The notes beneath the pieces are model-generated. The model worked only from the letters and a program-made list of their open reading frames with translations, was not told where the DNA came from and searched no databases. Source: Psilocybe azurescens (Eukaryota > Basidiomycota > Agaricomycetes > Agaricales > Agrocybaceae). From it: a stretch of 64,000 nucleotides of DNA. Shown in pieces: positions 14,821 through 51,441 of this stretch. The stretch spans positions 1 to 64,000 of the forward strand of contig JAJIRX010000718.1 in NCBI GenBank assembly GCA_023853785.1, read 5' to 3'. A program made the translations under genes and the position numbers. Numbering within the stretch: the first letter of the stretch is position 1; the number at the start of each line of letters is the position of its first letter.

Positions 14821-14966
14821 ATTTCACCGTCAGGAAGAGAATATTCTTTCAAGGCCTGGTGGCCAATGGGTAAAGTCTTTATTCATGTAGATCTAGAACA
14901 AGGATTTAATGTATCCGGGAGAGAAGCGGGTATAGTGATTTTATGAAATGTTTGCAAATGTTACAA

Positions 14967-17900
14967 CTATTGCGCAGCAATCTTACAGCTCCGAAGCAAA
15001 AATGAATTAAAAGGGTTCTCGTAAAATATTTCTTCGTCGTCATCGACGACAAAGCTTCCTAGATGATACTGATCCAGCTCCTCATCTGGTGGTGGCGGAG
15101 AGCTAGAAGATAACTGGCGAAACCGTGGCCCATCGTTTCTCCCGAATGGTCTCGCGCGCACAGGGCCATCAGTAAACAATGGCCCTTCACCGTTTCTTGG
15201 GGCTTGTGTAAGTAGACTCCGGCGATATATCTGACTCTGGTCGTAAGACTGAGAAACCTGAGTAGCTGGCGAGTCTTTCAAGAACATTCGATCCGACTCG
15301 CTCTCTTGGTCGTCTTCGCTGTTCGAGCCACCCTCACTGACATCGTCGCCGGAATGGGCTGCTTCACCATCGAACAACGTATTTGCATTCCGGCCTAGAA
15401 TAGTAGGTTTTGGCCGTCTTGACTTCCCCCTTCTCTTTCCCTTTCGTCTTGGATTTCGGTTGAATTGGTGTGGACTCGATACGATTAAGACGACGTTGAG
15501 GTTGGGGCGAAGATTCCATAGCTGGGGACTCAGGCTCATCGAATATGATACGACGTCTCCTTGTGTGATTCCCGACAGGACGCACAGGAAAAGACGGCTC
15601 CGGCATCTTGGGCGATTCCAGAAAACGATCCGGGATAACAGGGGGAGGCATAGTGGTTCTGCCTTCATTCCCTGTTGGAGACGTGGGTCCGCTGGAGAGA
15701 ACTAATGGCGAAGACATTATCTTTTTGGCCTGCAGTAACCGGCGAGTGTTGGTCGTCTTCGATGGAGAGAACAAGCTGGGCGGGATATCCCTGTTAGAAC
15801 CCTGCTGCCAATCGGCAGGTCTCGCCCTACTCGCACTTGGTTCAATAAATTGAACGGAATCCTCCTCTGGCGCTTCGAGAGGATCAGATGTATTCACATA
15901 CATGTCTCTGGAAATAGGATGTGATATTTCGATAGACTCATCTCCAATTTGTATTCGTTTGAAAACAGGTTTGGGCGTGGGACGGATGGGTGAGGAATCG
16001 ACAATTTCAAAGTTGAGATTATCTTCATCATCTTCAACCAACCAAGACATATCATGGTCATGGTCCTCATTAAGTGGATTTTCCGGGGCTGAACTATGAG
16101 ACTGGTGGTCCTCGTCAGGCGGGTCGTCCGGGGTTGAGGTGCGATTTCGAGGTTGCAACCTCCGTCGAATTGGAGAGACGCGACTCTGGTCGGAGTCGGA
16201 TAGTTCGATGACGGATTGGTCTATCTTTCTTTTCGTCTTTGGGGATGGTTCAGGAGTTGGAGACATATTTATAGGAGTTCTTGACCGAGCCTTCCCTTTG
16301 ACATTTGAAAGCGAAACGATGCCTTGTTCGATGTCCATATCATCTGAATCATCTATTCCTTTCTGCGAGAGTTGACTGGAAGTTGGTATCTCGACCTTTT
16401 TCGTCTTGCGTGGTTTGGGCGCTTTGGTGTCACCTAATGTAGCAGACTTCCTGAGCTTACCCTTCGCTGCAGGTTTTTAGTCCCAGAAGGACCTGCAACA
16501 GCGGATTGTGTCCGACGAGGAGCAGGGAGGATGCGACCTGATTCCAGTTCCTCGTCGGTTTGGTCGTCTTGGCCACAAGCATCGAAATCTTTCGGTAAAG
16601 CGACTTTTTCGCCTTCTTGGGTCCTTTGACCACAAGATCGCGTACGGACACGAAACCCGTACTGGCACCGTCAGGAATGTTCCTGGAGATATCATCGTTT
16701 CGCTTCCTCTTCTTCGCAGTGCCTTTCTTCGGAGACCCTTTCTTACGAGCGTCTTCCTTAACATAATGCTGAATCTCGACAACTTTTTCGATACATTCCG
16801 GTTTGATGTGGCTCGGGATGAGACGTTCGACATCCTCATAAAGCTCATAACTCTGTCCTTTGTTGACCATCTTTTGCACTTCTTTGTAGGTACTTTCCGC
16901 TTTGTCGATGTTGTTTTCTTCGCGACCCTCTGCCAGTAGAGCATGGATAACTCCTGCGCGTTTGCGACCTGTTCTTCCAAACCGTTGAATCTAAAAGAGT
17001 TTAGAATTATTCAATTCTGGAATGAAAAGATGTTCGTACCATCCGAGTGGGCGCCTTGTCAGCATCATAGCACACAGTAAGGTCGATTTCACCGATATCA
17101 AGTCCTTCTTCGCCAATGCAGGTCGCGACGAGTACATTATACTCACCGGCTTTGAACTTTTTGATAACCTGTCCGAAGAGAATCAATCATTTGTGAAATT
17201 GGAAGCGACATTCATACTGACCTCAAGCTGCTCTTTCTGTTGAAGGCCTTTATTTCCTTGTTTATCGGTGCCTTGGCCAATAAACTCGGCAGCGCGGATT
17301 AGAGGGCGCTCTTTATCCAGTTCCTTCACTATTTCTTGCACTACTCCTCGGTAGGAAGAAAAACCATAACTTTCGTGTCATCTGGCTCTGCATTGTCCCC
17401 GTCTGCCTCCTCGTCAGCGAGCTTTGATCCGAAGTGTTGGATTAGTATAGTCTTCAACTTTTCGATTTTCGGATGAATGCCCCAGCCAACTTGTCGTTGG
17501 GCTTCAACCTCTTTCATGAGCGTAATGTAGCTGGGGTCATTCTTGAATCGTTTACTGTTATTATTTTGTTTTTTGCTCCTGCCATGTCTTCGTCTATCTC
17601 TGTTCTTAATTCATTGAGATATAAATAGCACGTTTCGAAAGAGCCCGTCACCTATACAACGAATAATTAAATTAATCACAATTTTGGAAGAGAGTTTTGG
17701 GCACATACGAGGTACATCATAACTCTAGCCAGTTTTGATAGCACAGATAATGCCGTAAAGAGGTGAGGAGGAGACTCTCTCATCAAAGCCTGGGCCCTAT
17801 ATGGGTGCAGCGAAATTGCCGATTCGTTAGGACGAAGCACATTGGCTGCAACTAGTTTCTTTATGTGAGGCTACCACACAAGTAAATAACCAGTAAACCC

Positions 17901-19596
17901 AGTAGAAACGAGAAACTTACTTCCATGACCTTCACCAAAAGATTTCTAATCTTTGCGAGATCTTCGTTTGCTTTGATTATATGAGGCACAACCGTCTAGT
18001 AAAAACACATCAGGATCTCTTCAATCATGTGTCATTTGAAAATACCTTCTTGTGGATATACTGTTTAAGGTCTAAACTTTCTTCGTTACGAATTTCAATC
18101 CGACTAATATGCAATCCATCCACCAGCGTTTGAACAGCCTCGACAGTGTTTCCGGGAGTAGCGGTCAAAGCAAGAACCCTAAAATGGGGATTCTTGGCCA
18201 TCATAAATCGGACGACTTGATTGTACGCATAGTCTCCACTGGCACGATGAGCCTCGTCTACAAAAATGTAAATCAACAGATATCAAACAAGTCGAGATGC
18301 ACAGACCTATGACTAGCAAGACGATTTCTCCGACATCACAATTCTGTTTTACCAGATCGTTCATTAATGTCTGGGGCGTCATGAAGAAAACTCGTTTTTC
18401 TCTCCACTAAATCTCATGTAAGCTACTGTGTTACACATGAGTGAGCAAAGCTTACATATCGAGCCCGAGTCGCAGCAGGAACCTCCCCGTTCAATTCCAC
18501 GCTATCATTTCCAGGAATACCACAGGTTTCATGGCAGGCAATAATTTGCTGCGACACCAGAGGTTTGGTAGGAGCAACAAATATAACCTTTCCTTCCGGA
18601 AACCAGCGGTAGTCTATCGCAGGATTCCCCATTAGTTAATTCATTGTCAAGACTGAAAGTGCTCACAGTTCAGCATCATGACGCCTGCAATAAAAGTTTT
18701 ACCCAACCCAGTTGGTAAAGCAACCAGAGTATTCTCGAAGAGACAGTTCTTGACAATGTTATATTGATAGTCTCTTTTGGGTTTATTCAGAGGATATATC
18801 CAATGCTTAGCCTCGAGGAGATCCGGGGTCAATTTCATGGGAGGAGGCTGTTATTGCACCGATTAGCAAAGATCAACAGCATAAAAAGATACATACTGGT
18901 CTGAAAGGATGCCGTATTTTAGTTTCAATAAAAACTCACAGTGACGAAAAGATTAAAGCTTACCCGGCTAGAAACGAGATCGATGGTCAGCAGTTACACA
19001 CAGTGAAACGAGCTAACCAACTTGCTTGAGACGAATGGAGCAGGAAATTGCTCAAATTCTACAGTTTCCTCTCCAGAATCATCCCCAGCTTTACCTTTCC
19101 CCTTGCCCTTCCGTGTCCCACTCTTCGCGTATGCAGTCTGATCCCATTTCTTCGTCTTTGGCGCTTGCTGCCCAAAGAGACTCCGTTGATCAGACTTGGT
19201 TTTCTCTGGCTGAGATCTTGGAGCCTTGTTAGAGTTACTCGACGTTGTAGGAGGTAGGACATCTCCAAAGAGGGTGGTCTGCACTGTGTTCTTGGAAGAC
19301 GTGCGCAAAATCTTGCTGGGTCCAGCCACAGGTTGCGCCTTGCCAGCGTACGTATCATTAATAATATTGTCTAGTTTAGCCAGCTCAGTCTCGTCAACAT
19401 CAAACGTCATATCGTAGAATGACGAGTCGGAGGAAGGTTTCCTGGAGACTTTAGTAGGGGGGAATAGGGGTGTCGAAACAAGTTGCGGTAGTACTGCTTT
19501 GCGAGGTGAAAAATGAGCTGCCTCGATCGCATCTAGTTGTTGTAGGGCTGACAAGTCAAAGTCGTCGTCTCCATCAAAATATCCATCGGAGCTCAT
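14967..19596 (-). CDS. MPH1: MPH1, FANCM-type ATP-dependent DNA helicase
   Basis: The ATG at 19596 begins a Ser/Asp-rich N-terminus. Next come [20 protein letters not shown], Walker [30 protein letters not shown], the DEAH box in [15 protein letters not shown], and [15 protein letters not shown]. The second helicase half has motif [13 protein letters not shown] and [19 protein letters not shown]. The long C-terminal third is low-complexity, with many Ser, Pro and acidic stretches. Family members unwind D-loops and remodel stalled forks. About ten introns are present. A frame change at an A-run near 15410 (GCCAAAACC on the coding strand) fits one extra A, and others are likely in 16400-17500. 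The gene is divergent from the G-patch gene at 19956. Confidence 0.88.
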
Positions 19597-19955
19597 AGCA
19601 ATCGTGAGTAGAAAATGGTAAGGAGAGCAATGTTGAGCCTTTGAAGCACCCGGACATAAACAACTCGCGAAGTGCGTGTTCTAGCGGTGCCACCTTAACG
19701 CGACGTGGTCACGTGTCTGGCCCACATGGCTAATAGCCGCTTCACTCGAAAGCCTCAAGTTCAAGCACAAGCACAACGACAACGATAATAACAACGAACA
19801 CACAAACGATTCCCTAGCTTTGCTTGAACTGTTAGCTTAGCGCTGACATTAATAATACGCAAAGGTGAATTTGAATGCCTTGCTGCTCAGCAAAATGCCT
19901 TGACTTACCACAGTTCCTTCCTCAGGGTCTTTGACTTGGCTTTATCACGCAGACC
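19597..19955. other. Divergent promoter between MPH1 and the G-patch gene
   Basis: No coding support. The stretch holds an ACGCG core near 19698-19702, similar to cell-cycle MCB elements, and a CACGTG E-box at about 19710-19715. Both are short enough to occur by chance. The CA-rich stretch near 19760-19810 resembles a fungal 5' leader. Confidence 0.35.
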
Positions 19956-21721
19956 ATGTCTGCAAACGCAATCGCTCGTTGGAACGCGATCCCGCTGGAA
20001 CGTCCCAATGACGCGGACGCAGGATCTACCACTCTGAAGGTACTCACCCCAACTTCGCTCCGCTAATGGTCCTCGTTACTACTGCCTCTCTCTTTTCTTC
20101 ACCCTATCAGCGTGGAAGACCCGAGGACGATGGAGGTCTTGCCGACAACGACGACGACGACGACGTTTCGCTTGTCTCTCGATCCCCGTCACCCCGTCCT
20201 CACGATTCCATGGACGTGGATGAATCCTACCTCCATAAATATGACGAATACGTCCGAGGCCCGGTTCGGGAAGTCATTACTGTCGAGACAAAGATCAAAC
20301 CCTCCAATAAAGGGTTTGCTCTCCTTTCGAAATTCGGCTGGGTTGAAGGCCAGCCTGTAGGATTATCTGGCGACGGTAAGCGAAAAAATATCTACAGGGT
20401 CACTAAAACACCGTCTGTGATTTATCTAACCCAACTCTAATAGGACGAACTGAGCCTATTCCATTCCATATCAAATCGGACTTGACAGGACTTGGGAAAA
20501 CAAGCCAAGATGTTCGGATGATAGAAGAAACAGTCTCTCAAAGACGAGGTCTTGATTCGGAGCGCCAGCAGAAAGAAAGTGAAGAACAACGTAAATTGCG
20601 AGAGGTACGCCACTGAAACTTACATTAACCTCGCTCAATTCAATCATTTAAACGTGGCACGTCCAAAAACCTTTTCTATAGGACTCAGTAGCTCGCAAAA
20701 CTGCACTAGAATCGGAAATAACATCGACTCTTCGTGCCTTCTATTGTACTCTATGCGACAAGCAATTCAAAAATGTTGCTCAGTACGATGAACACACCAA
20801 CTCATACGCGCACCACCACAAAGCCCGCTTTAAAGACATGCAAGCCAGCGCCCGTCTTAAACCCAAAGAAGAAGTCGACAAACGTAAGGAAAAGGAGCGC
20901 AAGCGAGAGGAGAAGGAACTTCGTAAAATAGCCGCCGCTAATGGTATCAAAATGCCAAAACCAGCCGCCATCCCCAATCCTTCCATTGCACTAGCCTCTA
21001 CGTTACCAGCCGACATCACTAACAGCAACAACAGTGCTGCAACCGCCAACATGGAAATCGATGGCGTTCCCATCCCCACCGACTCGAAAAGGTTAAATTG
21101 GTCCTCAATATCTGGCGATAGCCATCACAGTGCCCAGGGTGATGGCAGCGGCGGCGGTTTCAACAAATCGGGTTGGGCTTCCCTCGGCCCCTCCTCAAAC
21201 TCCAGTCCCGCTGCCCCTAATAATAGCCGATTCGGCCCGCCCATATCTTCTGGGTCTTCCTCCCGGACCTCAGCAACATCAGCAGGCGAACCTACGACAC
21301 AAACGAGCAATCGATCGAGCCATATCCCCACTTTCCGAAACGCCGGTTGGACATCCCTTGACACAGGCAGCTCCCAGCCTCCACCTCCACCTCCTCCAAT
21401 AAGCCGTCAAGCATACGAACACCCACCTCCTCCACCGCCCTTGGAGGCTCCTCCGGCTCCTCCTCAGCTAGGAGGATGGTCGAACACATCGTCCTTGTCT
21501 GCAGGTCTAGGCTCGTCTTCACGACAGTGGCAGAGTTCTTTCGCATCACCACCACCTCCCTCAAATTCATTTGCACCACCGCCGCCCCTCCCGAGCCATC
21601 ATTTCTGCCCTCTGCACCCACACCGCCTCCATCTCACCCTGCGCCGGCCCCACCACCTCCTGAACCTAAGCCCGTCCGTTCAAGCTGGCAACAATTCCAA
21701 AAGAAAGGTGGACGGAAATAA
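19956..21721 (+). CDS. G-patch and U1-type C2H2 zinc-finger protein (GPATCH8-like)
   Basis: Exons 19956-20039, 20111-20375, 20444-20604 and 20682-21721 join cleanly. After an acidic Ser-rich stretch comes the G-patch (GFALLSKFGWVEGQPVGLS, then GRTEPIPFHIKSDLTGLG). A zinc finger follows: FYCTLCDKQF with the His pair in DEHTNSYAHHH. Next is a KE-rich helix (DKRKEKERKREEKELRK). This order matches human GPATCH8. G-patch proteins usually activate DEAH helicases in splicing or ribosome assembly; the partner here is unknown. The C-terminal 200 residues are Ser-, Gly- and Pro-rich with poly-proline runs, ending RSSWQQFQKKGGRK. That ending needs a one-base shift at the C-run 21585-21588. Confidence 0.85.
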
Positions 21722-22314
21722 TCTCGCTGCTCAAATTGTGTATACCCTTAGCTTTGACTTTTGCCCTGTCCATGCTCGTTATCCTCAAAATTGTTTGTCA
21801 CACAAAAATAGGAATACTTCGATTCACAAAAATTTGCTCTCAAAAGGTATTATCAACAAACGAGGCTGATTCATTATGTATGTAAAAAAAAACTATCTCA
21901 GCTGAGAGGTGAGGGAGACGAAGAGTAAAAAGAATACGAAAAGAGAACAATACTAATTAGCTACATTTGGAGAGAAAGGTGGTATGCGACGAAGATGGCT
22001 ACGTTCCCGAATAAAAAAGGTTCGTATGATTGATGAATTTTGAACGATGTAAAAGTAGGTAAAAAATATGACTTTTGTGGACAACATCGGTAGCAAGAGT
22101 GATTCGACAGAGGACAAGAAAACGAGCGACTGCGTCCCACGGACAAGATGGAACAGTTGGTTGACAAGGTGCAAGACTATCACTACAAAGGCCAAAGAGT
22201 TATGGATATATATGGGTAAGAGAGAGCGCGCAAGAGAAGTCGAAACGACAGGCAATGGGACCGAAGAAAGAAATAAAAAGTTTGGCAGCGGCGCGGCGAA
22301 CTGTCACCTTTAAA
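21722..22314. other. Convergent 3' intergenic region
   Basis: Nearly 600 nt between the stop codons of the G-patch gene and the BET gene. AT-rich with short A-runs and no supported coding frame. It probably holds both 3' untranslated regions. Confidence 0.45.
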
Positions 22315-24928
22315 TTACTCTGAATCGCTCCCAGAGCTGTCCGAGCCAGAGCTCGAGTCCGATGAGTGCTCGCTCTCGTCGTTTCGTCGTGCTGGAGCAG
22401 CGCTGGTCGCACCGTGGGGTTCGAACAGGGCCATGCGCTCTTCCAGCTGACGAATCTTCTCTGCCTCCTTCTCTTCATCCATACTCTTGCGCCTGAGACC
22501 ACCTGTGCCCGTGCCCTTGCCGGTGCGATTGCGCTTGGGTTGCGCTGGCTGGCGCATAGGACGTAGGACAAAATTATAGAGCTTGGTGAGGACGGCCGCT
22601 GGTAATTGATCAATCTCCAGCTCAATCTCCTCTGTGCTCTGTGATTCAAAGAACAGGTCAGGGCCAGTGTGTGCAAGGGCAAAAGATAACGAGTTGAACA
22701 GGCGAAAAAGACACTTACGTCTCGGATCTCGGGAACACCCTCGTGAATGATCTGGATGACGCGCTCCAGCCGGGCGCCGTCAAGTTTGCCAATGGACTCG
22801 CTGAGATCTTTCTTCTGTTCAAAGGTGAGGACGTCGTCATCAGTGACGTTCTTCTTGGTTTTCTTCTTGGACGGTGCCTTAGGTTGCTTGGGTGGGGGCT
22901 TTGACGTCGACGCAACAGGCGCCTTCTCCTTCTTCTTCTCTTTCTTCTTCTCCTTGGGTGCTTTGGCCGTCTTAAGAGATTCGATGTTATTCTTCATCGT
23001 CTCAATCTGGCTCTCCATCATCGCAATAGCGCCTAAATAGAAATAAATAAGCATCGATATGAAAGTAAGAATCCAACAACTTACGTCGACGCTCTTCATC
23101 AGAGTCTTCTTCGTCCTCTTCCTCGTCATCACTAGCGTCTTGAGGTTGCAGAGGTGGAAGACTCTTCCACTTGTCGTCGAAAAGTCGCTGCAACTCCTGT
23201 CCGGCGAGATTGACCGGTGTGCCCGAAGGGTTAAAAGTGAAACAGTTGCGAATCATTAATTTGAAATCGTCATAAAAGCTCTGTGCAGTTTCGTATTCTC
23301 CGCCGTCTAGTTTCTTCCGGATTGTCGACAAATCCATAGGCTTTTTGATGATTTTCGGATACGAGGGAATTTCAAGCTTCTGCCAGTCTGAATCACGTGT
23401 TTGTTAGGAAGCAGAAGTATTGATCAGAAAATTGTACTCACCAACAGGTTCGTAGAATGGATAAGCGAAGCCAGCATATTGTTTTCTATTCAACTCTTGC
23501 AAAATTTTGTTACAATACTTGAGCTGCTCGGATGTGCCATCAGGTTTAGTCTTCTTGCCTTTTCGGTTCTTCTTCGGCGCGTCGGCATAGGGTAAATCTT
23601 TCGGTGGCGGAGGATGAATTTCGCGCTTGGGACGGCCGACGGCCTCTGCGTCTGAGCGTCTGATAACAGGAACGGATGTCGAGGCCCGACGGGGAGCAGG
23701 AAGATTTTTCTTATTAGCGACAGGTGTGGGTGCCACTGGGGCGGGTGGCGTGGTGGCCTTTCGAACGACAGCGGGTTTAGGAGCGGGTTTCTACGAGGGC
23801 GAAAAAAAAGTCACATCAAACCTCGATGCGGTAATCAGTGATGCGAGAAAAAACTGACCTCTATTCTAGGGGGTAGATGTTTGATAGCTTTCTCGTAAAT
23901 CTCCAGAATCCGCTTTGCCATTTCCGAAACGAGGTGATCAGGGCCGTTGAAGGTAATAGCGTTCTGTACCATCAGACGAACATCCGCTGTCACATCCTCT
24001 GCGTCGTAGTAGCGAGGATTGTGGGGGTTTGAATCAGGCCTGGAAGGGTTGGAGGCAAAAGCTTGCGCTCAATGGTGGAGATGTCCATGGGCGTTTTGAT
24101 GATGGAAGGGTAATGAGGGACATTGAGCGCGATAGGGTCGACTGGACGTAAAAATGGAATGCCGTCTTTCAATTTCCTCAATGTCCTGAGTGTGGAGCCA
24201 ATATAGCGATATTGCTGCGGAGTGAGGGTGCACTCCCTCGTCGGCGGCGGGGGCTGCGAAGTCGACGAAGACGCATTGGTGGTGGGTGGAGGAGGAACTG
24301 TCGTTGGCGGTGGCGGAGGGGTAGGGGCGTGCGATACTGGAGGTGGAGTGGCGGACTTCAGACGAGCGACGAAGCCAAAGATCAGCACGCCTGGAACGGC
24401 GCACAGAGAAGGAGAAAAAGAGACTCACATGAGTCATGGACGCCATGTCCGCGTCTGAATGGACTCTCGCTCGCTTAGCGGGGGCTCATCGTGCTCATTG
24501 TCGCTGTCGTCGTGATAGGACCTGGTAGACGAGCCGATTGCCGTTTGTAGCTGGATGGTCGATGCTGGCCATGGAAAAGTCGGCGGAGATGCCGGGAGTA
24601 GCTGCGGGAATGTGAGAGTCGCCCATCACGACATCGGCGGTGCCATGAATGGAAATGGGGGCTGCAAAAATAACAAGGTAAGACAAAGAAGTGAGTAGAA
24701 CGGACTTGGCATACCATCGAGCTCCTTTACGGGAAGGGGCTCGTGGCGGACATCGCTCTCCTGCTCGTTGTCGGCGTAGTCCATGTCGATCTTGACATCG
24801 GGGGCGACCGAGTTGTCGACGGGGGTTGCGGGGGAGTCTGTGGCCGGAGAAGGAGGGTTATCATTGAGCGCGTGTGGCAATGGAAACACTTTGGCCGATA
24901 TACCATTGGTGGTGTGACCCGAGAGCAT
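22315..24928 (-). CDS. BDF1: BET-family double-bromodomain protein (BDF1)
   Basis: The ATG at 24928 begins a Pro/Thr/Ser-rich N-terminus. Bromodomain 1 shows PFLRPVDPIALNVPHYPSII, KTPMDISTIERKL and NAITFNGPDH. Bromodomain 2 shows AYPFYEPVDWQKLEIPSYPK, KKPMDLSTIRKKLDGGEY and NCFTFNPSGTPVN. After an acidic stretch and a Lys-rich coiled region comes an ET domain (LTFEQKKDLSESIGKLDG, VIQIIHEGVPEI, EIELEIDQLP). A C-terminal Ser/Asp cluster ends SGSDSE. BET proteins bind acetylated histone H4 and work with TFIID. Frameshift at the G-run 24480-24484 (one base missing). Several introns of 50-60 nt. Confidence 0.92.
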
Positions 24929-29972: not shown

Positions 29973-30667
29973 CTACGACGATGGCTTGGGATTTTGCTTA
30001 TCAACCCATTCCAGCCATGATCCCTTGTAGTTCAGAATACTACATAGCGAAAGTCAATACCAACATCATTTTAAAAACAAGACAGATGAACAGACTTTGT
30101 GAAACCGTTCCGTTTAGCGACATCAGACGCAGTAGAGCTTCTCTTTCCACTTCGGCAGTAGAATATCACTTCCTGTGAGGGTTGAGGTTTTTCGTAGCTG
30201 AACTTGGCAAAGAACTCTTCCCTTGGTAGGTGAAGCGCATCGCCTAAGGACAGAGAGAGGCAGGTTGACTGCAGATGGGATCATTCCCTGGACAACCTCG
30301 TCCGGTTCTCGAACATCAATGATGTATGCGTCCTATTAGTTGTTCTGTCTGCTCAGTAGGGTATAAAACCAAAGTCGAGATATATTCGACGCACAGGTGA
30401 AGGGTTTCGCGTTTTGGGAAGGAAGTCTTCGTAGGTTATGACTTTTGCATCCCAGTCCCTTTGCATGTCGTCTTCTTTTTCGAGAGTTAGTTTCTTCTCT
30501 TCTTCCTCAGGAGTTTTGGGAGCTTTGGCAGTTGGTGAAGGGGTATTGAGAGGTTGAGTCGAGTTAAACCGAACGGTACGTAACACTGCGGGTCGAGCAG
30601 TAGTTACGGACGCGAGGTTATACCTCGACGCAGTCCTGAGCGTTCGTATAACGGATCTCTGTAGCAT
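29973..30667 (-). CDS. Mitochondrial single-domain rhodanese
   Basis: The ATG at 30667 starts an Arg-rich presequence (LQRSVIRTLRTASRYNLAS, then RFNSTQ). The rhodanese domain has VITYEDFLPKTRNPSP, AYIIDVREPDEVVQGMIPSA, the active-site loop VIFYCRSGKRS with catalytic Cys, and NYKGSWLEW near the end. The product resembles fungal RDL/TSTD1-type sulfur carriers. Splices at about 30356-30415 and at ACAA|GTCTGT were read to give NILNYKGSW. A one-base shift near 30240-30244 restores GDALHLPREEFFAKFSYE. Its neighbour frataxin also serves mitochondrial sulfur and iron chemistry. Confidence 0.85.
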
Positions 30668-31424: not shown

Positions 31425-32115
31425 ATGGCTCACAACCATGGAACCACAACTTCAACTTCAGGAGCTTCGTCATCGATTCATGACATGATGATTCCTTATC
31501 TTCACTTCACCGGCGGGGACTTCTTGTTCTTCGAGGCATGGCAACCTACTTCCGCTGGCGCCATTGCAGGAGCCTGTATTGGCCTTGCAATGCTTGCCAT
31601 TATAGAAAGGTGGCTTTCTGCCACAAGAAACGTCTTTAACGCTCACTGGCGCCGAAGGTATTTACACTTCGTAACTCCTTTGCTCGTGTTAAGCAACCAA
31701 TTCCTATCAGAGCTTTCGATCAAACGGCTGCTCGCGATCGGGTCGTGACAGGTCGCACAGTTTCCTCTGAAAGAGGGCATGATTCCATCGAAAATCTTGA
31801 TACTCATGAGAAAGAGGTATCTGAAGCAGGAGCGCAACCTCTCGCTAAATCGAAAGTTAAACCTCGCCTTCGCACTATCACCCCCTTTATCGCTGCCTAC
31901 GATATACCCCGTGGTCTTTTGTATGGACTGGAAATGCTCCTCATGTATTTGTTGATGTTGGCGGTGATGTATGACCTTTCACATCCTGTCTGTCTGCATT
32001 TCTCTGAATTCTTTCTAGGACCTTTCAAGCTGCCTATATGATTTCTATTGTGCTCGGCTTAGGCATAGGAGAGATACTTTTCGGGCGCGCTGTGGTCGTT
32101 GGAGGGGGTCATTGA
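31425..32115 (+). CDS. CTR1: Ctr-family high-affinity copper transporter
   Basis: Exons 31425-31657, 31711-31968 and 32019-32115 join cleanly. The N-terminus MAHNHGTTTSTSG is His/Ser/Thr-rich. Helix 1 is SAGAIAGACIGLAMLAIIER. A cytosolic loop follows. Helix 2 carries the MxxxM copper gate (LEMLLMYLLMLAVM), and helix 3 has the GxxxG packing motif GLGIGEILFGR. Ctr proteins form plasma-membrane trimers that import Cu(I). Two copper-binding BIM1-like genes follow in the same orientation, which supports a role in copper uptake. No frameshift is seen. Confidence 0.92.
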
Positions 32116-32650
32116 CACCACTGTGTCGGGAATTATTTGTTATTGTGTTACAGTTGCATATCTTGTAAAACCAGAGTTCTTATTTTACCCTTCGGTGTGC
32201 AGTACCTTGAGGCGACTATCGCGTATGGTTACCATGTCCAGCATTGTCCATCGTTGGACCCTCCCTTGGCTCATTTGCAAGGAGGATCGGTTAATATATC
32301 GAAATTTCTTTGCTTCTGCAATATTTCCAAAGACGCGATGGTCCTCAAGGAACAGTCAAGCTCCTTAGATTGTAAGGAGACTGGTCTGACTTCTCTGATA
32401 ATCGGATAGTGGCCAGTGGCGAACCGAAGACCAATTATTTCAGCGAATTCCTTGGCATTTTCGATCTATATTTCCTGGCCAAGCAATTCAGTGAGGACGC
32501 AAAAAGTTTTTCACCAAAGCACCGTAGAGGTCCCCTTTCCCTTGTTAACAGCGGTATACTATATAACCTGGCTTAACGAAATGGATAACTTCAGAGAATT
32601 CCACCACTTCTCCCTCACGACCTCTCTTATCCGTACAACTTGCACTCATC
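32116..32650. other. Intergenic between CTR and the first BIM1-like gene
   Basis: No supported coding sequence. A TATA-like element (TATACTATATAAC) near 32555-32567 lies about 85 nt before the next start codon. The rest is unremarkable. Confidence 0.45.
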
Positions 32651-33446
32651 ATGAACTTCTCTACTCTTACTTTCCTTCTGTGTATGTTTGGCGCTGCTAA
32701 TGCCCACTTCCGCCTGAACTACCCTGGCCCTCGAGGTGCTTTTGTCGCCGATAGAGAACCCCTTACTGTGGTCAGTGTCTTCCAGTGCTTCGCGGGTTTA
32801 TCGTGCCCTAAAAGTACATTGTTTTTCAGGCGGATACACTGATGTCACTACGAACCGTACGACCTTTCCACTTTCTGGTGGATTCTTCAAGATTGAAACG
32901 GGCCATCCCGACTGGAGTGGTTTGTAACCCATCTCATATAAAATGCATCGTAGAATTCGTGTGTTAAAAGATACTTTCTATCAGCTAGCGTCATCCTCTC
33001 TACGGCTGAAAACCCCAACTCGTTCGACCTCTTTTCCGTAGATGGACAAGAGCAGATCGTTTCTCCATGGGGCAACGAACATGATGCTGGATCTTTCTGT
33101 ATCCCTCTTAACATAAGCGCTGCCAACATCGAGGGTGTCAGGGATGGGTCGAACGTTACTATTCAAGTCGTCTTCAATGGTGGAGATGGGGCTCTGTATC
33201 AGGTACTTTTCATTTTGGTGTCCTATTCTTTTCACAGTGGATCTAATTCAACATTTCCAGTGTGCTGACCTTACGCTCTCTGCTGAACTAACACAACCTT
33301 CCGATGTTACATGCACTAACGCAACAACTCCGCACAACCACGGCTCTGACGACGCGCAATCTGGAGCCATGACTATCCATCATGGACTCGCGGCTTACAC
33401 AGCGGTTGGATGTGGTATCATGGGGCTCCTTGCTGCTCTCTTGTAA
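32651..33446 (+). CDS. BIM1/X325-like secreted copper-binding protein, copy 1
   Basis: Exons 32651-32770, 32830-32919, 32985-33202 and 33261-33446. A signal peptide (FSTLTFLLCMFGAANA) would be cut to leave an N-terminal His (HFRLNYPGPRG), the copper-binding His brace of X325 proteins. Further landmarks: [51 protein letters not shown], a Thr/His linker and a hydrophobic GPI-type tail. LPMO-like in fold, X325 proteins lack oxidase activity; Cryptococcus Bim1 delivers copper for Ctr1 import. A missing T at 32763-32764 hides the Cys before the first intron. The His of GHPDW and the Asp of QCAD are candidate extra copper ligands. Confidence 0.88.
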
Positions 33447-33861
33447 AATAGTACATGCTTACATTGTAAGCTACCTTTCTTCTTGCACGCCATGTGTATT
33501 GGAGGCGTTGCAGGATTGACAATATTATACCACTCTGAATTTCATTTGCCTTAGTCGTGCACATTCCCGCAAACCTGGGACCGGGTTGGCTGTTTCCTCT
33601 CTTGTTTCTAGGCCCCAAATAGAACCACTGCCTCTTCTCCCTTGGAATTCTGGATACTTCCTGTCAATGATATGAGGTATCGTTTTTGAACAATCGTGAG
33701 CATCACGTCGTATGGCATGAGGTTCTTAAAGTTCGGGCCGTTAACACTATGATAAAAATAGAATGTAAAAACTTTTTCACCTTTTAGCTTAGTGTATTTA
33801 AGGCTGGAGAAGCCTTCGACAACATTCAGCTCAGCTGCCAGCAACTATCAGTAACACATTC
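33447..33861. other. Intergenic between tandem BIM1-like genes
   Basis: Holds the 3' end of copy 1 and the promoter of copy 2. A TATTTAAGG element near 33795 lies about 65 nt upstream of the start codon. No coding support. Confidence 0.45.
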
Positions 33862-34727
33862 ATGCGTTTATCAGTAGCTGTCCTTCTTCCTTGTTTGGCC
33901 ACTGTCGTGACTGCCCACTTCCAGCTTCAGTTTCCACCACCGAGAGGCCCCTTCGTGGAAGACAACGAGAAGAACTTCTGTGGTTGGTTGCACCTTCCGA
34001 TAGAGACTTAAGATGGTTCGAATACTGAGAATACCCCTTTACAGATGACTATACTGAGGTCACGACCAACCGAACGGTATTCCCTCTGAGCGGTGGATTC
34101 TTCACGTTGAATTCGGAGCATCCCCAGTGGACGGGTGAGAGCACATATGCATTTGAACTACTGCCAAAAGTCTCATTGCTCTATTTTCCGAAATAGCTGC
34201 CGTCCAAATTGCCACTACTCCGGATCCTAACACTTTCGATGATTTCAAAGTCGTCAACAACTTCTTCCAGGTCAATGGTGAAGGCGTTTTCTGTATTCCC
34301 TTGGATTTCAAGTCTTCCAATGCTACAGGATTGACGAATAACCAAAACGTCACCATTCAAGTATGAAACCGACTCTTTGACTTCCACGATATATTTTGAT
34401 TCAGAATATTCTGTATAGATTGTGTACGCTGGTGGAGATGGGAATCTTTATCAAGTAAGTCTTCATCGAGATGTTCAGAATGGGACCGCCACTTACATGA
34501 AACCTTACCAGTGTGCCGACTTAACGTTGAGCGATAGTGCTAAAATATCATCTGATATTGCTTGCACCAATGGGACATCCTCGTCCTCAAGCTCAAACAC
34601 TGGCACTAGCGCCACCACTTCCGGTAACACGTCCCCTTCTCAACCCTCCTCTGCGCTCCCTGTTATCTCTTCGCCAATCTTTGGCGTCTTGTGCGCTCTT
34701 TCTGCTATTGCTTTAGTCGTTATATGA
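33862..34727 (+). CDS. BIM1/X325-like secreted copper-binding protein, copy 2
   Basis: The signal peptide [16 protein letters not shown] is followed by mature [20 protein letters not shown]. The family motifs recur: [64 protein letters not shown] Ser/Thr/Pro-rich stalk and a hydrophobic GPI-type tail ([15 protein letters not shown]) close the protein. Five exons with GT-AG introns fit without a frameshift, and intron positions match copy 1 after FC, after W(S/T) and at YQ|CAD, so the pair arose by duplication. An extra intron divides VTIQ from IVYAGG. The sequences have diverged strongly, so the duplication is not recent. Confidence 0.88.
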
Positions 34728-41346: not shown

Positions 41347-44300
41347 CTACAAGCCGAGATTTGAGATGACTCGAGAAACTTCATCGACAGCATCGTCGTC
41401 CAGGGTGTGTCTTGTCTGAGCCGCTTGCCCGAAGACTCCTGATGATCGAGCTGATAATGGTGGACCGTAAACACTAGGGAAGGAAGGGGCGGTAGCAGAA
41501 TTGGGACTCGAGTTGCCTCCAGTACCGCCGGTGGAAGTGGTGGGCGATTCGGGCACTGCGTGGCTCGAAGCTGATTCGGCGATTTTTGAAAGAGAGTAGG
41601 TCAGGTCGAGAGACTGGGCACGATTGTTCAATGATCGGGGTTGTTTGGTGGTCTGCTCCTTCAGCTTGGCCTCCAGGAGCGAGTCCGAACCACGTTTGAT
41701 CGCATCTTGGGAATGTCTAGAGCGATGTGGCATTCCAGTTCCCTACAAATGGCGATAAATATAGAACAGACACGCGCGTAAAATGAGGGAAAACATACTA
41801 TAGGCGGAAGAGGTGTCCAGTAATCGACTCCTGGTACCGATGGACCAGGGATATAGTTCGTATCCGCATCCTCCTGCGCTTGTATATTATGGATGTATGC
41901 AGGCGAATTGAATAGAGCCTTGACGTCGGGAGAAGAATTAGCGAGCCTCAGACGGCGGTCACCCATGACGACGTCCGAGCGACCCATGTCCATAGATTCT
42001 AGACCATAGGAATTTAAAAGAGTTTAAAGTGTTAAATGGTAGGCATAAACGTACCGTGGCCGCGTGTCCTAGCTGCAGAAAGCACTTTGCTGTCAAAATG
42101 AGGGAATGCCTCGGCAAATGAATCGTTCTTCTTGTGAGATTGAGCCGTCGGAGATGGGTAGACATGAACATTATGGTTCTGCAAGAACTGCTCCAGCATC
42201 TCCCTGGCAGTGATCAAGAAATCGCTATTGCTACGTTGGCATCGGAACTTGAATGAATACTCGGTGGGCGTTTCGGTGCCGGTATTTCCGTTGGCAATTC
42301 CGGCTCTTCTGAAATTGGGAGAGATCGATACTTGCAGTTCGCGTTTGACATGCTCGACCATGGCATTGAATTCTGGAGAAGCACAAACACGAGGTAGCTC
42401 GCTGCTGGGAGGAACAGCCATGTCCGCCTCGAACGGAACGTGATCCTAACATAGCATAAACATTGAATGCAGTTGAGGCAGTCAAAGAACCAGTCACGTA
42501 CCAAAAGCATAGTAGCAGCAATTTGGACCTGACTCTCTGGACCATAAATAGTGACGACATCCGAGGCAGTTTCTTTGTCAGGGAAGCGAACTCGAGAGTT
42601 GGTCTTCGTCTCGATATCGCGAATAAAGATACTCTTCTCTCCCAACAAGGTACGATGATACCGGCGTGGTATAGAAACAGTTTCATTTACGAAGTCTTTG
42701 TCCTACCAAAAAGGTCAGACCTATGATTATAATGAGCTATCAGTGGCGCTTACCTTGGGGTTAACGAGCTCCATGACGGATAACTTGAGGTTATCCAAGT
42801 TGATAGCATTCTTGGCAGGTGTTCGAGCGACGACATTATCGTCATTATCATTGTAACCACCCAGAGCGGCGAATTCTTCTGCGTTCGAAAACTTGACGTA
42901 GACGCCATATTTCTTCATGATGCGCTGGATGCTCCTCCCTCCGACGCCAATGATGCGTTTATGATAGCCTTCCGGAACATGAAATGAAATTTCGGCGGGA
43001 AGTTCCTCTTGAAGTAAAGTGAGACCCTGAAGAACAGAATTATCCGGTCCAGCGATGTCGATCAGGAAATTGTGGTCGTTAAAAGTCTCGAACTTGATTT
43101 TGACATTGGTCGTTTGCATAATTTTGTTGATTTTGCCGTTCTTTTGCCACTGATAAAATCACGATGCTCGTTCGACAATTCTATCTGGAAACGGATTTCA
43201 TGGTGGAAAGCCTTACAAAAAGGATGAAAATGACATCATTGACAAGACAAGAAGTAACGCACCTTGATTACATCTAACTCCATTATCATATTGACCGCTG
43301 TTCGCACTTCCTGTTCGAGTCCATGCATCTCAAAGCACATGCTTTTGAAAACGACTTCCGCACCCGTCGCAGTCGATATTTGCTTCAACAACGCAGTGAT
43401 TGTAGAGCTATTAAGGTTTGCGGGAGGTAGAAGGGCATTGAACTGTACTGGCAAAAGCCAGAACGAACCGACGTAGTATTGGCAAGCCTGGACGTAATAC
43501 TATATTGGTCATCTATTCTGCATTTGAAGATATATTACTCACCAGTTGCATGATGGACCTAACAGTGCGCTGAATGTTGACTCTATGATCGCCATAGACG
43601 GTGATCAGACTCGTAGAGCTACCCAGAGGAGGAAATTGAATGAAAGTCGCGTTGTCACTCATAATTGATTTGAGGTCCTCTGCTCGGTCGGTTACCATCC
43701 AATCAAGCTTACGGGGTAGAATGGCCGTATCCCTTGAAATAACCGACTTGCTCTAAGATTAAATAGGTTAGTTCAATGCTGTGAACACGACGGAAAAAAA
43801 CGGACTTTTGTAACAGAAACCTGAAAGAGCATGTCGCGAGCTCTCTGGACTCCGAAAAATTCTCCAGTGATCCAAATGATATTGCTATTACGAGCACCCG
43901 TTCCTGTATGCGTACTGATGTCTGGGCCCATAAGGTCTTGTAGAGGCGAAGGGTAGTAAATGTTGGTCGCAGTCTCTTCTTGTATTGTTTGCAAGACGTT
44001 TCGTTTGCGACCAGCTACGATGGCATGCAATTTGTGATCAATCTCACAGACTTCGGAGTGCAGACCGCTCTAAGATCGAGTGAGCTACGTAAAAAAGTAG
44101 CTGAAAGGCTGACAACGTACCAATTCATCCAACATTACCAATAGACGTACACGAGCCAGGTCGACAGCATCCTCCGTTCCAGTTATGACCAACTCGCATA
44201 CGCGTTCTGTCTCCAACCCAGACCAACCAGCGCTGCTACTAATTCCATCGGGCGGTGTACGGTTTGAGAGAGCTAAAGGGCTGTTGACGACGGCTATGTG

Positions 44301-46862: not shown

Positions 46863-47800
46863 AGTTCAGGGTGAGTGAGTAGTAGTCCTGTGTCGTGAAA
46901 CAAGTCCGGTTGGGTAAATAGCACTGCGCAAGAAATGTAGATGCAGAGATTATCTCAGTCTAATCAGTATAGGAAGCAGAGTCGGTGCCACAGGCCAATG
47001 TAGAGCAACAATTTTTCTTAGACCTGTGCCCCTATTCGGTAATTAGTCATGAACAAATCGTGAGACTAAAAATAAACACACTACCAACATACCAGCGTAG
47101 TAGTTAACTATTTGATCAGGTAGCCATCAAAGTTATAACTAAGTTATAACTAGTTACTAACTCGATAACTCTCCCACGGTTGATGGCTAGGGGTGAGTTC
47201 AGAGATCAACTGGCCAACTCAAGAGAATACTCAGGCGTAGAGCTAAAAGTTGTAAGTTTCGAACGAGTGGAGAACGTTGACATCAAAACGATTATTTGAT
47301 TTTTCTTCAAATTTATGAGTGTAACTCACTATGCTAAATTTGCGAACTTTACACTTTGATGAAGAGTTGGACTTACAGTACTTATATGACATATTGGAGT
47401 TGGATGCTGATGGCGATCTTGACCCAGAATTGGATGCGACTGCCGAGGTCATTCTTTCAGGTTAATAGCTACTTGTTTTCCTTATCAATACTTAACTAGT
47501 TAGTAACTTCGGCGTAACTCGCATATCACTGCAACATACTACATACTAAACTTGACTTCTTAAAGTTGAAGCTTATGTTGCTGGAAGTCTGAAGTCTGAA
47601 GGCTCTCAAAAGTCACTGTATTAACTCCTGTTACGCTTTTGGTTCTAATTCATTGCTTTCATTGACTAGGCAAAAACCGGTCTGAAAATTGTTACATGTA
47701 AACTCTGGGAGGGGTAGTCAGAGAGATTCCCTTCCACACTTGCCAGCCAGTAAATTATGCACGTCCGACATTCCTGCATCCTCGGCTGGTATCCCCTGTG
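46863..47800. other. 0.9-kb gene-poor region with TAACTAGTTA-type repeats
   Basis: Short direct and inverted repeats occur here. AGTTATAACT is repeated at about 47131-47150. AACTAGTTACTAACT near 47149 and AACTAGTTAGTAACT near 47492 are near-complementary and about 340 nt apart. An intervening plus-strand frame reads LDLQYLYDILELDADGDLDP, ending at a stop near 47465. This might be the relic of a small mobile element or gene. No target duplication could be shown. Confidence 0.35.
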
Positions 47801-49398
47801 TTACATAAACTTTTTGTGCATGCGCATAAACCACTCCGTGTGAATAACATGACCTCGTTCCCTGCGTAGGTAAACAAGGTACGAAGATGCCGCAGACACG
47901 ACTGCCCCAAAGCTGAGCGCAGCTGTATATTTGAACTCTGAGGGTCGACTGGTGTTCGTTAAGCCTCTGGAACAACAGTTATAGAAAAGGTGTGCTCACG
48001 ACAAGATGATGACCATTACATATCTAAGCAGATCCAAGATATTCTGCAGTGAAAATTGTAGTCCGTTAAGAGTGTTACGTCGTGGATGATCTGCTAGAGT
48101 AATCTGAAGTAGCTTCAGCTGACAAAGGTCGAACGACCAAAGGCCGACGCGTGATACGGCCATGCCACCGAATAGCAATGCTTGGTTCCATGAAGGCGCC
48201 TTCGCACCCTGTTTTGACCCGACATAAAAAGAAACAAGTACGGGTACAAGGGAGAGCGTCTCTGACCTTCAAAAGTTAACTGTCTCAGCAGATGACAAGG
48301 ATAGAGAACCACATACCATATACTCCAGCTTCCAGCCCTTGTCAGTCCGATCTTCTTCTCCAAAACAGGCATGATAGCTGTCCCAAGGAGTCCAGTGCAG
48401 ACAGCGACCCCTCGCATACCGGAAATAAGTCCATCGGAGTACGTGTTCGTCTTGAGCCATGCGATCATTGTTCCATCAAAACTAAGAGTGGTAAAGTACA
48501 ACAATGATATGGATAGAGAGCTCAGGAACACTGGACTGTGAATGAAAAGTCTCCAGTCCTTGTACGATGCTGTGGCCCAATGCTTGATCGACCCAAAAGA
48601 GAACTTTGAGGGAAGTAAGGTTTCAGGAGAGCCAAGCGAGGATTCTCCACCTATATGAACGGGGTGCAGGTTATGATGTCCACAATTTTGACTAGCGGCG
48701 AGGACTGGGAAGCGTTTCCAGACGATATTGATCCAGAATAATTCGAATGCTAATCCACCGATTGCTATGCTCGCAATAATGATAAGAGTCACAGTGTTTC
48801 CCACTGTACTTGTCAATAGACCTGTAAATAACGGTGATATAAGTTTACAGCCCAAGTCAATTCGCCTCATCCATAAATTAAGGCGCGTCAGGCGGGCGTC
48901 TGAGTTGGCTGCGATTGTGGTGACCCAGTCCCTTTCTATGGCCACAGACATGGCAATGTCCGAAAGTTTCATTACGCAGCCCGCAATTGTTGTCAGAGAA
49001 AATAAAGTCCAGACAATGCCTTGTCCCCCATGTCCTATTCTTTGACCAGCTTCTTTCGACTCGGATGGGTGTTTTACAAGCAGCACGAGCAAGAATGCGT
49101 AGAGGCTCACGACCGCGAATTTGGCAAGTAAAATATTGCACCGAATGACTTTGAGTCGTGATGGATTGTCTACGAGAGACCCGGCGTTTCCTCCGAAGAG
49201 AACACCCGCAAGAGTGGTAAAGAATCCATACAGTGCCGATGGAAGAAGAGTGGTCGGGAAAAGATCGATGAGAAACAGATAGCTGGCGAATTCGGCTGTC
49301 CTTTGCGTCCACGTTACAGAGAGATGCTGCGCTGCAAGAGAGAACAGTGCGATGGGGTCCAATCTGTCGTTTCCTTGATTGTCTTCAGTACTAGCCAT
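47801..49398 (-). CDS. Ferroportin-like (SLC40/IREG1) metal transporter
   Basis: The ATG at 49398 gives MASTEDNQGNDRLDPIALFS, then multiple membrane helices: SYLFLIDLFPTTLLPSALYG, FTTLAGVLFGGNAGSLVD, LLAKFAVVSLYAFLLVLLVK, KLSDIAMSVAIERDWVTTIA, RLNLWMRRIDLGCKLISPL and SLLYFTTLSFDGTMIAWLKT. The NLxMRRIDLxCKxxxP block and FDGTMIA are hallmarks of the ferroportin family. C-terminal helices include LLFGGMAVSRVGLWSFDLC. The product ends RRERGHVIHTEWFMRMHKKF. Animal ferroportin exports Fe(II); the direction and metal in fungi are not settled. Upstream in-frame GTG codons were not used as the start. Confidence 0.87.
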
Positions 49399-49778
49399 CA
49401 ATGGCACCACAATGATTGAAAGGAGTTGAGCCAAGACGGCGGTCGGCCGCGGTAAATTTCCCACGAACTACTTGAAAGCAAAGGGATGCATTGCTGATAC
49501 CTGCCAATACTAACCATTAACCAGGCTGGGTATTTGCTACATCGAGAACAATACATCTTATGGTCGCCTTTGTTTTCACTAACATCAATCTTCAGAGCAT
49601 TAAATAATAATTTAAGAAGACAAATCAAAAGATCGCACAGCAAGCACCTCAAGTTGATCTATTGAAGATGACATTCTGGCCACTTTGGAATTAACAAACA
49701 AACTTGAAACAAACTACACCGTCAAATCCGTTCATCATCTCAGTAGCCATACAATGTCATTGAGCCGAGGAAACAACA
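49399..49778. other. Promoter of the ferroportin-like gene and 3' end of RBR copy 2
   Basis: No coding support on either strand. This region must hold the promoter of the ferroportin-like gene. Confidence 0.45.
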
Positions 49779-51441
49779 TCACTGCCAGCCTTGTTCATGA
49801 AAAGGTTCAAAATCAAAAAGTTTCTCGAAGCATTGGCCCCCTCGACAGAAAAGTGATTATACGGAGTGATCGAATCCAGCAAATCTCCACAACGATAACA
49901 GAAATGCTTGTTGCACCTAGTGCATATCATCTATGCAAGAAAATATGAGAAGAAATAATAAGACACGACCACGGATTGATCAACTTACGTGGTTGCATCC
50001 CTCGCTTTTCTGAACCGGGCTCTCGCAGCCGGGGCAAAGTGTGGTTGAAGACGAAATCCATTGACTTGTCGCCTGCTCTTGTGCGTGTTCAGCTACAAGG
50101 CGGAAAACGAATAGTCGACCATAGCGCAACTCAAGTGTTGTCCGCGCTGTAGAACCTTCTTCGGTGGCAAGATATTCCTCGAGGAGCCTTTTCTCTATAC
50201 CCAACTGGACAAGGCGATAAAGGGCCATGCCTTTATTACATTGAGTTGGGCAGTTAAGGCTGAATGAATCGGAGCTACACTTACCATGTATTTTTACACA
50301 GAGCACAAAAACTGTAGAAACATTGGTCACATTGCCTGAATCGATCCCAACCAGATTCAGGATCCGCATCGCCTGGTTTCGGAACTAAATTCTGACACTG
50401 AAGTCGAGGACAATACATTATTGTTGGATCTAAGCAGAAAGTAAGCCAAGATGCCATAGTTTGAATATCACGGAAAAAACTACCTCGTTCGAGTTCTCGT
50501 TTGATTTTCAACCATTTCCATCTTTCAAATTGAGAGGCGGAAACGATTCTGGAAACCTGATCTTCGCAGGATTCTTTTCCCTCCTTGATACAGTCGGGAT
50601 CAGGGCAGCCAACTCTACCCGCATCACCCTCTGCTATGCACATTGACCAGAAGTCCTCAAGACAATTACGGCAAAAGATGTGTTCGCACTGTAGTTTCAC
50701 GCAGTTAATGCCTTTCAGGTGGGTGAGGCAGATAGAGCAGGGGTAAGAACTCTGAAAGAACTGTGCCGAGTTGAAAGAAACCTCGAATCCGCAAAGTAAA
50801 GTGGCAAGGATAGGAGGGCTTGGATGATAGAGTCTGCGAGTATTTCCGTTAGAAATTACTCAGGCTCGATACACATATAACGCACTCGACGGCAAGCCCA
50901 TCTTCTGAAGATACAGAATTCAAGTCCACCAAGAAATCTCCACTGCGCAGGTACTCGATCCAATTATAGAGGACAGATTCTCCTGAGTTGAATATTCTAA
51001 AGAGCGCGTCTTTGATACCTCTCGTATTGGCCAGCCATTGGTGAGTAGCTTGCAGAGAAACAATGTCCGGAGGTGCGTAAAGTGGGTAGGACGGTGGGAG
51101 CGATACAAAAAGGACCACAGGGGGTAGAACAGTAAGAGAAAGTCCTTCGCTCCGTCTTGCTGCAGATGACGAAGACGAGGATGTGGATAGATCAACATCT
51201 GTAATTTTGACGACTCGAGATGATCCAAACTCGATCGGTATTTCGATTTTGAGGATACCATCCGAATTTTGACTATGAATACATTCCGGAAAGATAGCCT
51301 GTTCAGACAGTCAGCCTATACGTTGAGAGCGTTAGTGAGGTGATGGCACACCTGTAGAACTTCGAGCTCCTCGTTTTGCAAAGAAGAACAAGTTTTGATA
51401 TCAGCAATATTGTCAGAAAGAGAAAGGTCGGAAATGGCCAT
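49779..51441 (-). CDS. RWD-RBR E3 ubiquitin ligase (RNF14-like), copy 2
   Basis: Paralogue of the gene at 45184-46862 with the same order: RWD (MAISDLSLSDNIADIKTCSS, VSLPPSYPLYAPPDIV), RING1 (CSICLTHLKGINC, CEHIFCRNCLEDFW, GCPDPDC), in-between-ring (CPRLQCQNLVPKPGDADPES, CDQCFYSFCALCKNTWHG) and RING2 (CPGCESPVQKSEGCNHMICT, CYRCGDLLDS). The active Cys in SEGCNHM is kept. The final exon needs one missing base in TTTTC near 49826 to read GQCFEKLFDFEPFHEQGWQ, which aligns with the end of copy 1; the stop is then at 49779. Identity with copy 1 is clearly partial, so this is an old duplication. Confidence 0.85.

What the first reader, a model, noticed from the sequence alone, without database searches (positions are those of the whole stretch)
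31425..34727. Copper-acquisition cluster: CTR transporter plus two tandem BIM1/X325-like proteins
Seen: three plus-strand genes in a row, a Ctr transporter with the MxxxM gate and two secreted, GPI-type proteins that would expose an N-terminal His. Known: in Cryptococcus, the X325-type protein Bim1 works with Ctr1 in copper uptake. Inference: physical linkage with a duplicated helper suggests a co-regulated surface copper-loading module. Matching intron positions in the two copies show duplication, and their divergence suggests split roles.
Basis: partly seen in the sequence, partly recalled or inferred. Interest (0 to 1): 0.8.

Follow-up and report, generated by a model that had tools for sequence, protein, structure and literature searches.

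The report
Mushroom copper-uptake gene cluster
A Psilocybe-like mushroom carries a copper importer gene directly followed by two genes for copper-binding surface proteins, and the importer sits on the same piece of genome as such a gene in nearly all relatives that could be checked, which suggests that the proteins work together to collect scarce copper.

Summary
Mostly confirmed. Three plus-strand genes lie in a row: a Ctr copper transporter (195 aa, Pfam Ctr 4e-34) and two X325/BIM1-like genes. X325-2 is intact, with both copper histidines, the copper aspartate, four cysteines and a GPI-type tail. X325-1 is not: its first exon ends out of phase with the second, so it is a pseudogene, a base-call error, or uses a poor splice site. 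Three of X325-2's four introns are shared.

The linkage recurs. In 34 of 37 species present in both homologue lists, Ctr and an X325 lie on contigs of identical length (about 1.5 expected). Hebeloma has consecutive tags Ctr, X325-1, X325-2. The two copies are old sister lineages, on one contig in 13 of 14 species with both, and differ by a coupled residue pair next to copper-site landmarks: Gly/Gly in LaX325 and in most first-copy relatives, Asp/Glu in the second class.

Best reading: a Bim1-like copper-loading module for Ctr, by homology. Copper binding, co-regulation and split roles are untested. No paper I could search reports the linkage or the two classes, but the two founding X325/Bim1 papers were not readable.

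The parts
31425..32115 (+). CTR copper transporter gene, exons 31425-31657, 31711-31968, 32019-32115, 195 aa
   Evidence: Model; Pfam Ctr 4e-34; 97% identical to Psilocybe cyanescens CVT25_014941, 6 differences in 195 residues; MxxxM and GxxxG
32501..32515 (+). AAAAASTTTTTCACC word, 150 nt before the X325-1 ATG; candidate shared promoter element
   Evidence: one of only two exact copies in the 70.4-Mb assembly; chosen after the fact; 4 of 1000 shuffled promoter pairs and 12 of 1000 random window pairs reach a match as good
32651..33446 (+). X325-1 (BIM1-like, Gly class), exon 1 from 32651 (to 32770 at the donor that fits the sister gene), exons 32830-32919, 32985-33202, 33261-33446; exon 1 and exon 2 are out of phase as read
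   Evidence: exons 2-4 BIM1-like_dom 4.5e-23; X1 lineage
33767..33781 (+). AAAAASTTTTTCACC word, 95 nt before the X325-2 ATG
33862..34727 (+). X325-2 (BIM1-like, Asp/Glu class), exons 33862-33982, 34045-34134, 34197-34360, 34419-34454, 34512-34727, 208 aa
   Evidence: Model (stop codon at 34725-34727 from the ORF list); BIM1-like_dom 1e-30; LaX325 6ibh E 2e-32; X2 lineage

Best explanation
The locus is a copper-import module: a plasma-membrane Ctr transporter and GPI-anchored X325/BIM1-like copper-binding proteins that would capture Cu(II) at the cell surface in a His-brace plus Asp site and hand it, after reduction, to Ctr. The arrangement is an old Agaricomycete gene neighbourhood and not a feature of this strain alone. 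In Agaricales it often holds two X325 lineages side by side. Shown here: gene identities, conserved copper ligands, recurrent linkage, age of the duplication, class-specific residues. Inferred from homology to Cryptococcus Cbi1/Bim1 with Ctr1: surface capture and hand-over, induction by copper shortage. Whether X325-1 makes protein in this strain is open.
For: Families. A model of the X2-type homologue P0002 matches LaX325 first (Foldseek E 7e-15, TM 0.86 on the target) and AA10 LPMOs next (E 7e-5). Copper ligands in 198 homologues: N-terminal His 190, second His 193, GGDG Asp 194, all three present in X325-2. Linkage: 34 of 37 species; 14 of 16 when all contigs are under 1 Mb (0.13 expected) and 8 of 9 when under 250 kb (0.03 expected); adjacent tags in Gymnopilus dilepis (CTR CVT26_011901, X325 CVT26_011902, contig of 10,452 bases), Hohenbuehelia (007648/007649) and Hebeloma (CTR 440165, X325 440166 and 440167). 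Gymnopilus dilepis has a second CTR on another contig. Literature, passages only: Cbi1 is GPI-anchored, strongly Cuf1-induced in copper shortage and interacts physically and genetically with Ctr1 (PMC9258870); two BIM1-like proteins and both CTRs rise under copper withholding in Pseudogymnoascus destructans (PMC12113139, PMC13208438).
Against: No expression, binding or transport data. TTTGCTC/TTTGCTS is absent from the three promoters. The shared promoter word is not found at CTR. X325-1 is frame-broken as read. P. cyanescens and P. cubensis show a CTR relative but no X325 among listed hits, though one search lists 120 of 243. Three of 37 species are on different contigs. Contig identity rests on equal length, not on inspected sequence, and distance within large contigs is unknown.
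Confidence: 0.75

Rival explanations
1. Only one helper works here: X325-1 is a recent pseudogene in this strain and X325-2 alone serves CTR.
For: Exon 1 is out of phase with exon 2 at the donor that fits the sister gene, and of the 12 in-frame alternatives none keeps the usual protein with a normal-sized intron. P. cyanescens and P. cubensis show no X325 among listed hits.
Against: Exons 2-4 have no other disablement, keep the second His, the Asp and three Cys, and score well. The assembly is a 937-contig draft, where single-base errors are common, and no second haplotype of the locus is available to check.
Confidence: 0.35
2. The X325 proteins act on the cell wall (chitin or chitosan maintenance, copper stored in the wall) and not mainly as a feeder of CTR.
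For: Cbi1 loss changes chitosan and wall architecture, partly apart from Ctr1 (PMC9258870, passages). X325 was a major secreted protein of Crucibulum on sawdust media (PMC11766592, passages).
Against: Recurrent linkage with a copper importer. Family members tested so far had no polysaccharide-cleaving activity (PMC7529816, PMC7924993, passages). The two roles do not exclude each other.
Confidence: 0.2
3. The linkage is an inherited neighbourhood with no functional meaning.
For: Genes can stay neighbours by descent; species counted are related, so counts are not independent. No shared promoter element was found between CTR and the X325 genes.
Against: It persists in species assigned to Agaricales 17 of 19, Russulales 9 of 10, Polyporales 7 of 7 and Boletales 1 of 1, and joins two families with a known partnership.
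Confidence: 0.15

Closest known systems
Cryptococcus neoformans Cbi1/Bim1 with Ctr1
   Same: Same two protein families; GPI-type surface copper protein plus Ctr importer
   Different: Here the genes are neighbours and X325 is doubled. I did not examine the Cryptococcus gene positions, and cannot say which residue class Cbi1 belongs to
LaX325 of Laetisaria arvalis (PDB 6ibh, 6ibi, 6ibj)
   Same: Same family by sequence (E 2e-32) and, for the X2 homologue P0002, by fold; same His, His, Asp and four Cys
   Different: LaX325 has Gly after the first Cys and before the second His; X325-2 has Asp and Glu, as do 146 of 198 homologues. X325-1 has the Gly before the second His
BIM1-like proteins BLP1-3 and CTR1a/b of Pseudogymnoascus destructans
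   Same: Several BIM1-like copies together with CTR, of which two are raised in copper shortage (PMC12113139, PMC13208438, passages)
   Different: The locus tags quoted there (VC83_00191, 04814, 02818, 03095, 07867) are far apart, so no such cluster is described
Crucibulum laeve X325 pair (TFK41392.1, TFK41393.1)
   Same: Two X325 proteins with consecutive accessions, so probably neighbouring genes (PMC11766592, supplementary legend)
   Different: Read there as wood-decay secretome proteins; the passages seen mention no CTR

Membership tests
Ctr copper transporter (PF04145) | Ctr domain | tested here: met
   4e-34, 118.8 bits against a cut-off of 25.3
Ctr copper transporter (PF04145) | MxxxM followed by GxxxG in the last two membrane segments | tested here: met
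   MYLLM 156-160, GLGIG 177-181; the combined pattern is in 118 of 120 listed homologues
Ctr copper transporter (PF04145) | Copper transport | not testable with these tools
   needs an assay
X325/BIM1-like (PF20238), X325-2 | Domain match | tested here: met
   1e-30; LaX325 2e-32
X325/BIM1-like (PF20238), X325-2 | N-terminal His of the mature protein, second His, Asp on the GGDG loop | tested here: met
   His19, His66, Asp132 aligned with LaX325 and homologues; the ligand types are from PMC7529816 and PMC11766592 passages
X325/BIM1-like (PF20238), X325-2 | Four conserved Cys | tested here: met
   Cys40, 103, 138, 155
X325/BIM1-like (PF20238), X325-2 | GPI-anchor-type C-terminus | tested here: met
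   Hydrophobic uncharged tail, a simple rule and no GPI predictor; 146 of 169 homologues scored alike (28 of 34, 51 of 56, 67 of 79)
X325/BIM1-like (PF20238), X325-1 | Open reading frame with four conserved Cys | tested here: not met
   Exon 1 out of phase; three of four Cys readable in exons 2-4
X325/BIM1-like (PF20238), X325-1 | Domain match, second His and GGDG Asp | tested here: met
   Exons 2-4: 4.5e-23; His and Asp aligned
X325/BIM1-like (PF20238) | Copper binding without polysaccharide cleavage | not testable with these tools
   needs purified protein
Cbi1-Ctr1-type copper uptake pair | Joint induction in copper shortage | not testable with these tools
   no expression data; TTTGCTC absent from the three promoters
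Cbi1-Ctr1-type copper uptake pair | Physical and genetic interaction | not testable with these tools
   genomic linkage only

The most novel reading that the evidence does not exclude
Agaricales keep a two-step copper relay in one old locus: an Asp/Glu-class X325 whose extra acidic residues beside the copper site tune it as the capturing protein, and a Gly/Gly-class X325 (the class of the only solved structure) that releases copper to the linked Ctr. The two genes share a promoter word that occurs nowhere else in the assembly. Most Agaricomycete X325 proteins listed here would belong to a copper-site class that has not been studied structurally.
Probability: 0.2. Interest if true: 0.7.

Novelty: new variant of a known kind. 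Interest (0 to 1): 0.5.

Why it matters
How Bim1-type proteins pass copper to Ctr is not known (PMC9258870, passages). A conserved gene neighbourhood ties the two families together by an argument independent of Cryptococcus genetics, names which of several Ctr paralogues is the likely partner, and the old Gly/Gly and Asp/Glu classes offer a defined comparison for affinity and release. It also warns against counting X325 in mushroom secretomes as wood-decay LPMOs.

Tried and rejected
Hemizygosity of the module: rejected as unsupported. The locus has no second copy in the assembly, but the matching second-haplotype contig C51 (98-99% over window 12000-23843) simply ends at its last base, 29291. 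In some searches one candidate each was not scored and the window itself is not listed, so that candidate is presumably the window.

Known copper-response words: TTTGCTC and TTTGCTS, recalled as Mac1/Cuf1-type words, were not found in the three promoters; TTTGCTC occurs 16 times in the window. The reported word AAAAASTTTTTCACC came from comparing the two X325 promoters, so its rarity is partly built in; the control pattern occurs once in the genome. It is not within 3 mismatches in six of the fetched Ctr-paralogue loci, L001-L004, L006 and L007.

More X325 genes elsewhere in the assembly: none found with the family (1 match), X325-1 exons 2-4 (4 matches) or X325-2 (9 matches); all matches lie on C613. 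Very short exons could be missed.

Order of other species' genes and orientation: not available, because no fungal genome collection is held here and no metagenome scan was allowed.

Founding papers: DOI look-ups for Labourel 2020 and the companion Bim1 paper found nothing held. Ten text searches listed no paper that by its title or abstract start describes CTR-X325 linkage; passages of 11 papers were read, no paper in full.

Full report
What is in the window. The window is the start of contig C613 (179,266 bases) of a 70.4-Mb, 937-contig assembly. Its CTR protein is 97% identical to Psilocybe cyanescens CVT25_014941 (6 of 195 residues differ) and 75% to a P. cubensis protein, so the genome is most likely a Psilocybe. 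The CTR model has three exons and 195 residues, matches Pfam Ctr at 4e-34 and carries the MxxxM and GxxxG motifs. The gaps to the next genes are 535 and 415 bases. X325-2 has five exons and 208 residues and matches BIM1-like_dom at 1e-30 and the solved LaX325 at 2e-32.

The weak point. X325-1 keeps a good X325 body (exons 2-4, 4.5e-23), but its first exon ends one phase away from the second at the donor that corresponds to the sister gene (120 against 121 nt). Twelve in-frame donor/acceptor pairs exist; the three that use the corresponding acceptor either cut out conserved sequence, lose the first Cys, or need a 34-nt intron. In 198 homologues this Cys is present in 193 and gapped in 5. No second haplotype of the locus is in the assembly, so error and true break cannot be told apart.

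Introns. X325-2 has introns after codon positions 41, 71, 126 and 138; X325-1 has counterparts of the first, second and fourth. The copies are therefore related, as claimed, with one gain or loss.

Copper site. The family's ligands are two His and an Asp on a glycine-rich loop, plus four Cys (PMC7529816 and PMC11766592, passages). Among 198 listed homologues: first His 190 (7 gaps, 1 Asp), second His 193 (4 gaps, 1 Phe), Asp 194 (2 gaps, 1 Glu, 1 Ser), Cys 193, 198, 193 and 196. X325-2 has all seven. A model of the X2-type homologue P0002 (mean pLDDT 82.9) matches LaX325 first and bacterial AA10 LPMOs next.

Linkage in other genomes. Of 198 X325 hits 165 were named (137 species labels), of 120 listed CTR hits 83 were named (80 labels); unnamed rows were dropped. 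Thirty-seven labels occur in both. In 34 of the 37 the CTR and at least one X325 lie on a contig of identical length; random placement in a 40-Mb genome predicts about 1.5, in a 30-Mb genome about 2.0. With all contigs under 1 Mb it is 14 of 16 (0.13 expected), under 250 kb 8 of 9 (0.03). The exceptions are Coprinopsis cinerea, Lactarius psammicola and Lentinula raphanica. By order the counts are Agaricales 17 of 19, Russulales 9 of 10, Polyporales 7 of 7, Boletales 1 of 1; one member of each order was looked up, the rest assigned from recall. Adjacent tags: Gymnopilus dilepis CTR 011901 and X325 011902; Hohenbuehelia grisea 007648 and 007649; Hebeloma cylindrosporum CTR 440165, X325-1 type 440166, X325-2 type 440167, the order seen in the window. 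In Panaeolus cyanescens the tags are six apart. Species are related, so the counts are not independent events. The computed tail probability assumes independence and is not used.

Which CTR. The assembly has five Ctr loci. C30 and C895 are 96% identical to each other and C222 and C727 89%, so they are probably two haplotype pairs and the true number may be three. Of these C613 is the one next to X325.

Age and form of the duplication. In a tree of 200 rows the window's X325-1 falls in a set of 36 rows (SH-aLRT 99) and X325-2 on the other side. In a careful tree of 66 rows that I picked by hand the split has support 99/98 and is found in all 200 bootstrap trees examined. All named members of the X1 set are genera that I assign to Agaricales; LaX325 (Corticiales) also falls there, on a very long branch, so its place is unsure. 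Fourteen species have both lineages; in 13 they share a contig, and in the fourteenth, Agrocybe pediades, the two hits come from different assemblies. Five of the 13 have consecutive tags: Psilocybe cf. subviscida, Hypsizygus, Asterophora, Leucocoprinus and Hebeloma; in Volvariella they are 19 apart.

Two classes. The positions after the first Cys and before the second His are coupled: Asp/Glu in 146, Gly/Gly in 28, Asp/Gly in 9, other in 15, and Gly/Glu in none of 198. LaX325 is Gly/Gly, X325-2 is Asp/Glu, X325-1 has Gly before the second His (its other position cannot be read). In PfCopC a second-sphere Glu makes the site a strong Cu(II) chelator (PMC7529816, passages); a similar effect here is a guess.

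Regulation. The two X325 promoters share AAAAASTTTTTCACC at -150 and -95. It occurs exactly twice in the assembly. A match as good is reached by 4 of 1000 dinucleotide-shuffled pairs and 12 of 1000 random pairs of window segments. It was found after the fact, is not shared with CTR, and could not be checked in other species. TTTGCTC is absent from all three promoters.

Surroundings. On the other strand upstream lies a rhodanese-domain gene piece (30126-30332), downstream a KH-domain piece (42217-42702), a ferroportin-like gene (48118-49467) and an IBR/RING piece (50284-50859) (ten ORFs scanned). No other Ctr or BIM1-like gene was found in the window.

Prior knowledge. Passages of PMC9258870, PMC7529816, PMC10952591, PMC7924993, PMC12113139, PMC13208438, PMC11766592, PMC8708209, PMC8615602, PMC10349129 and PMC9550227 were seen. 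They describe X325/Bim1 as copper proteins partnered with Ctr1; none of the passages mentions gene linkage or the two residue classes. The founding papers were not held, and I cannot exclude that they report the neighbourhood.

Verdict. The module is real and old, its parts belong to known families, and its most likely work is copper uptake. New here, as far as searched, are the breadth of the linkage and the coupled residue classes.

Noticed in passing
window 31968-32003; L011 1501-1536: Thirty-six bases at the start of CTR intron 2 match C272:43544-43579 exactly on the minus strand. No explanation.
   Followed up: partly
window 12000-23843: A second haplotype (C51, 98-99%) is present up to the end of that contig; C51 carries about 7 kb extra near window position 14872.
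   Followed up: partly
L001/L002 and L003/L004: Ctr loci on C30 and C895 (96%) and on C222 and C727 (89%) look like haplotype or recent duplicate pairs.
   Followed up: partly
window 48118-49467: Ferroportin-like gene (PF06963, 7e-83) on the minus strand, about 13 kb from the cluster.
   Followed up: no
window about 47119-47531: Dispersed repeat: short stretches match many contigs at 77-100%.
   Followed up: no
PMC7924993 passages: The text names Laccaria bicolor as source of the solved X325 structure, the figure legend and the PDB entry name Laetisaria arvalis.
   Followed up: no
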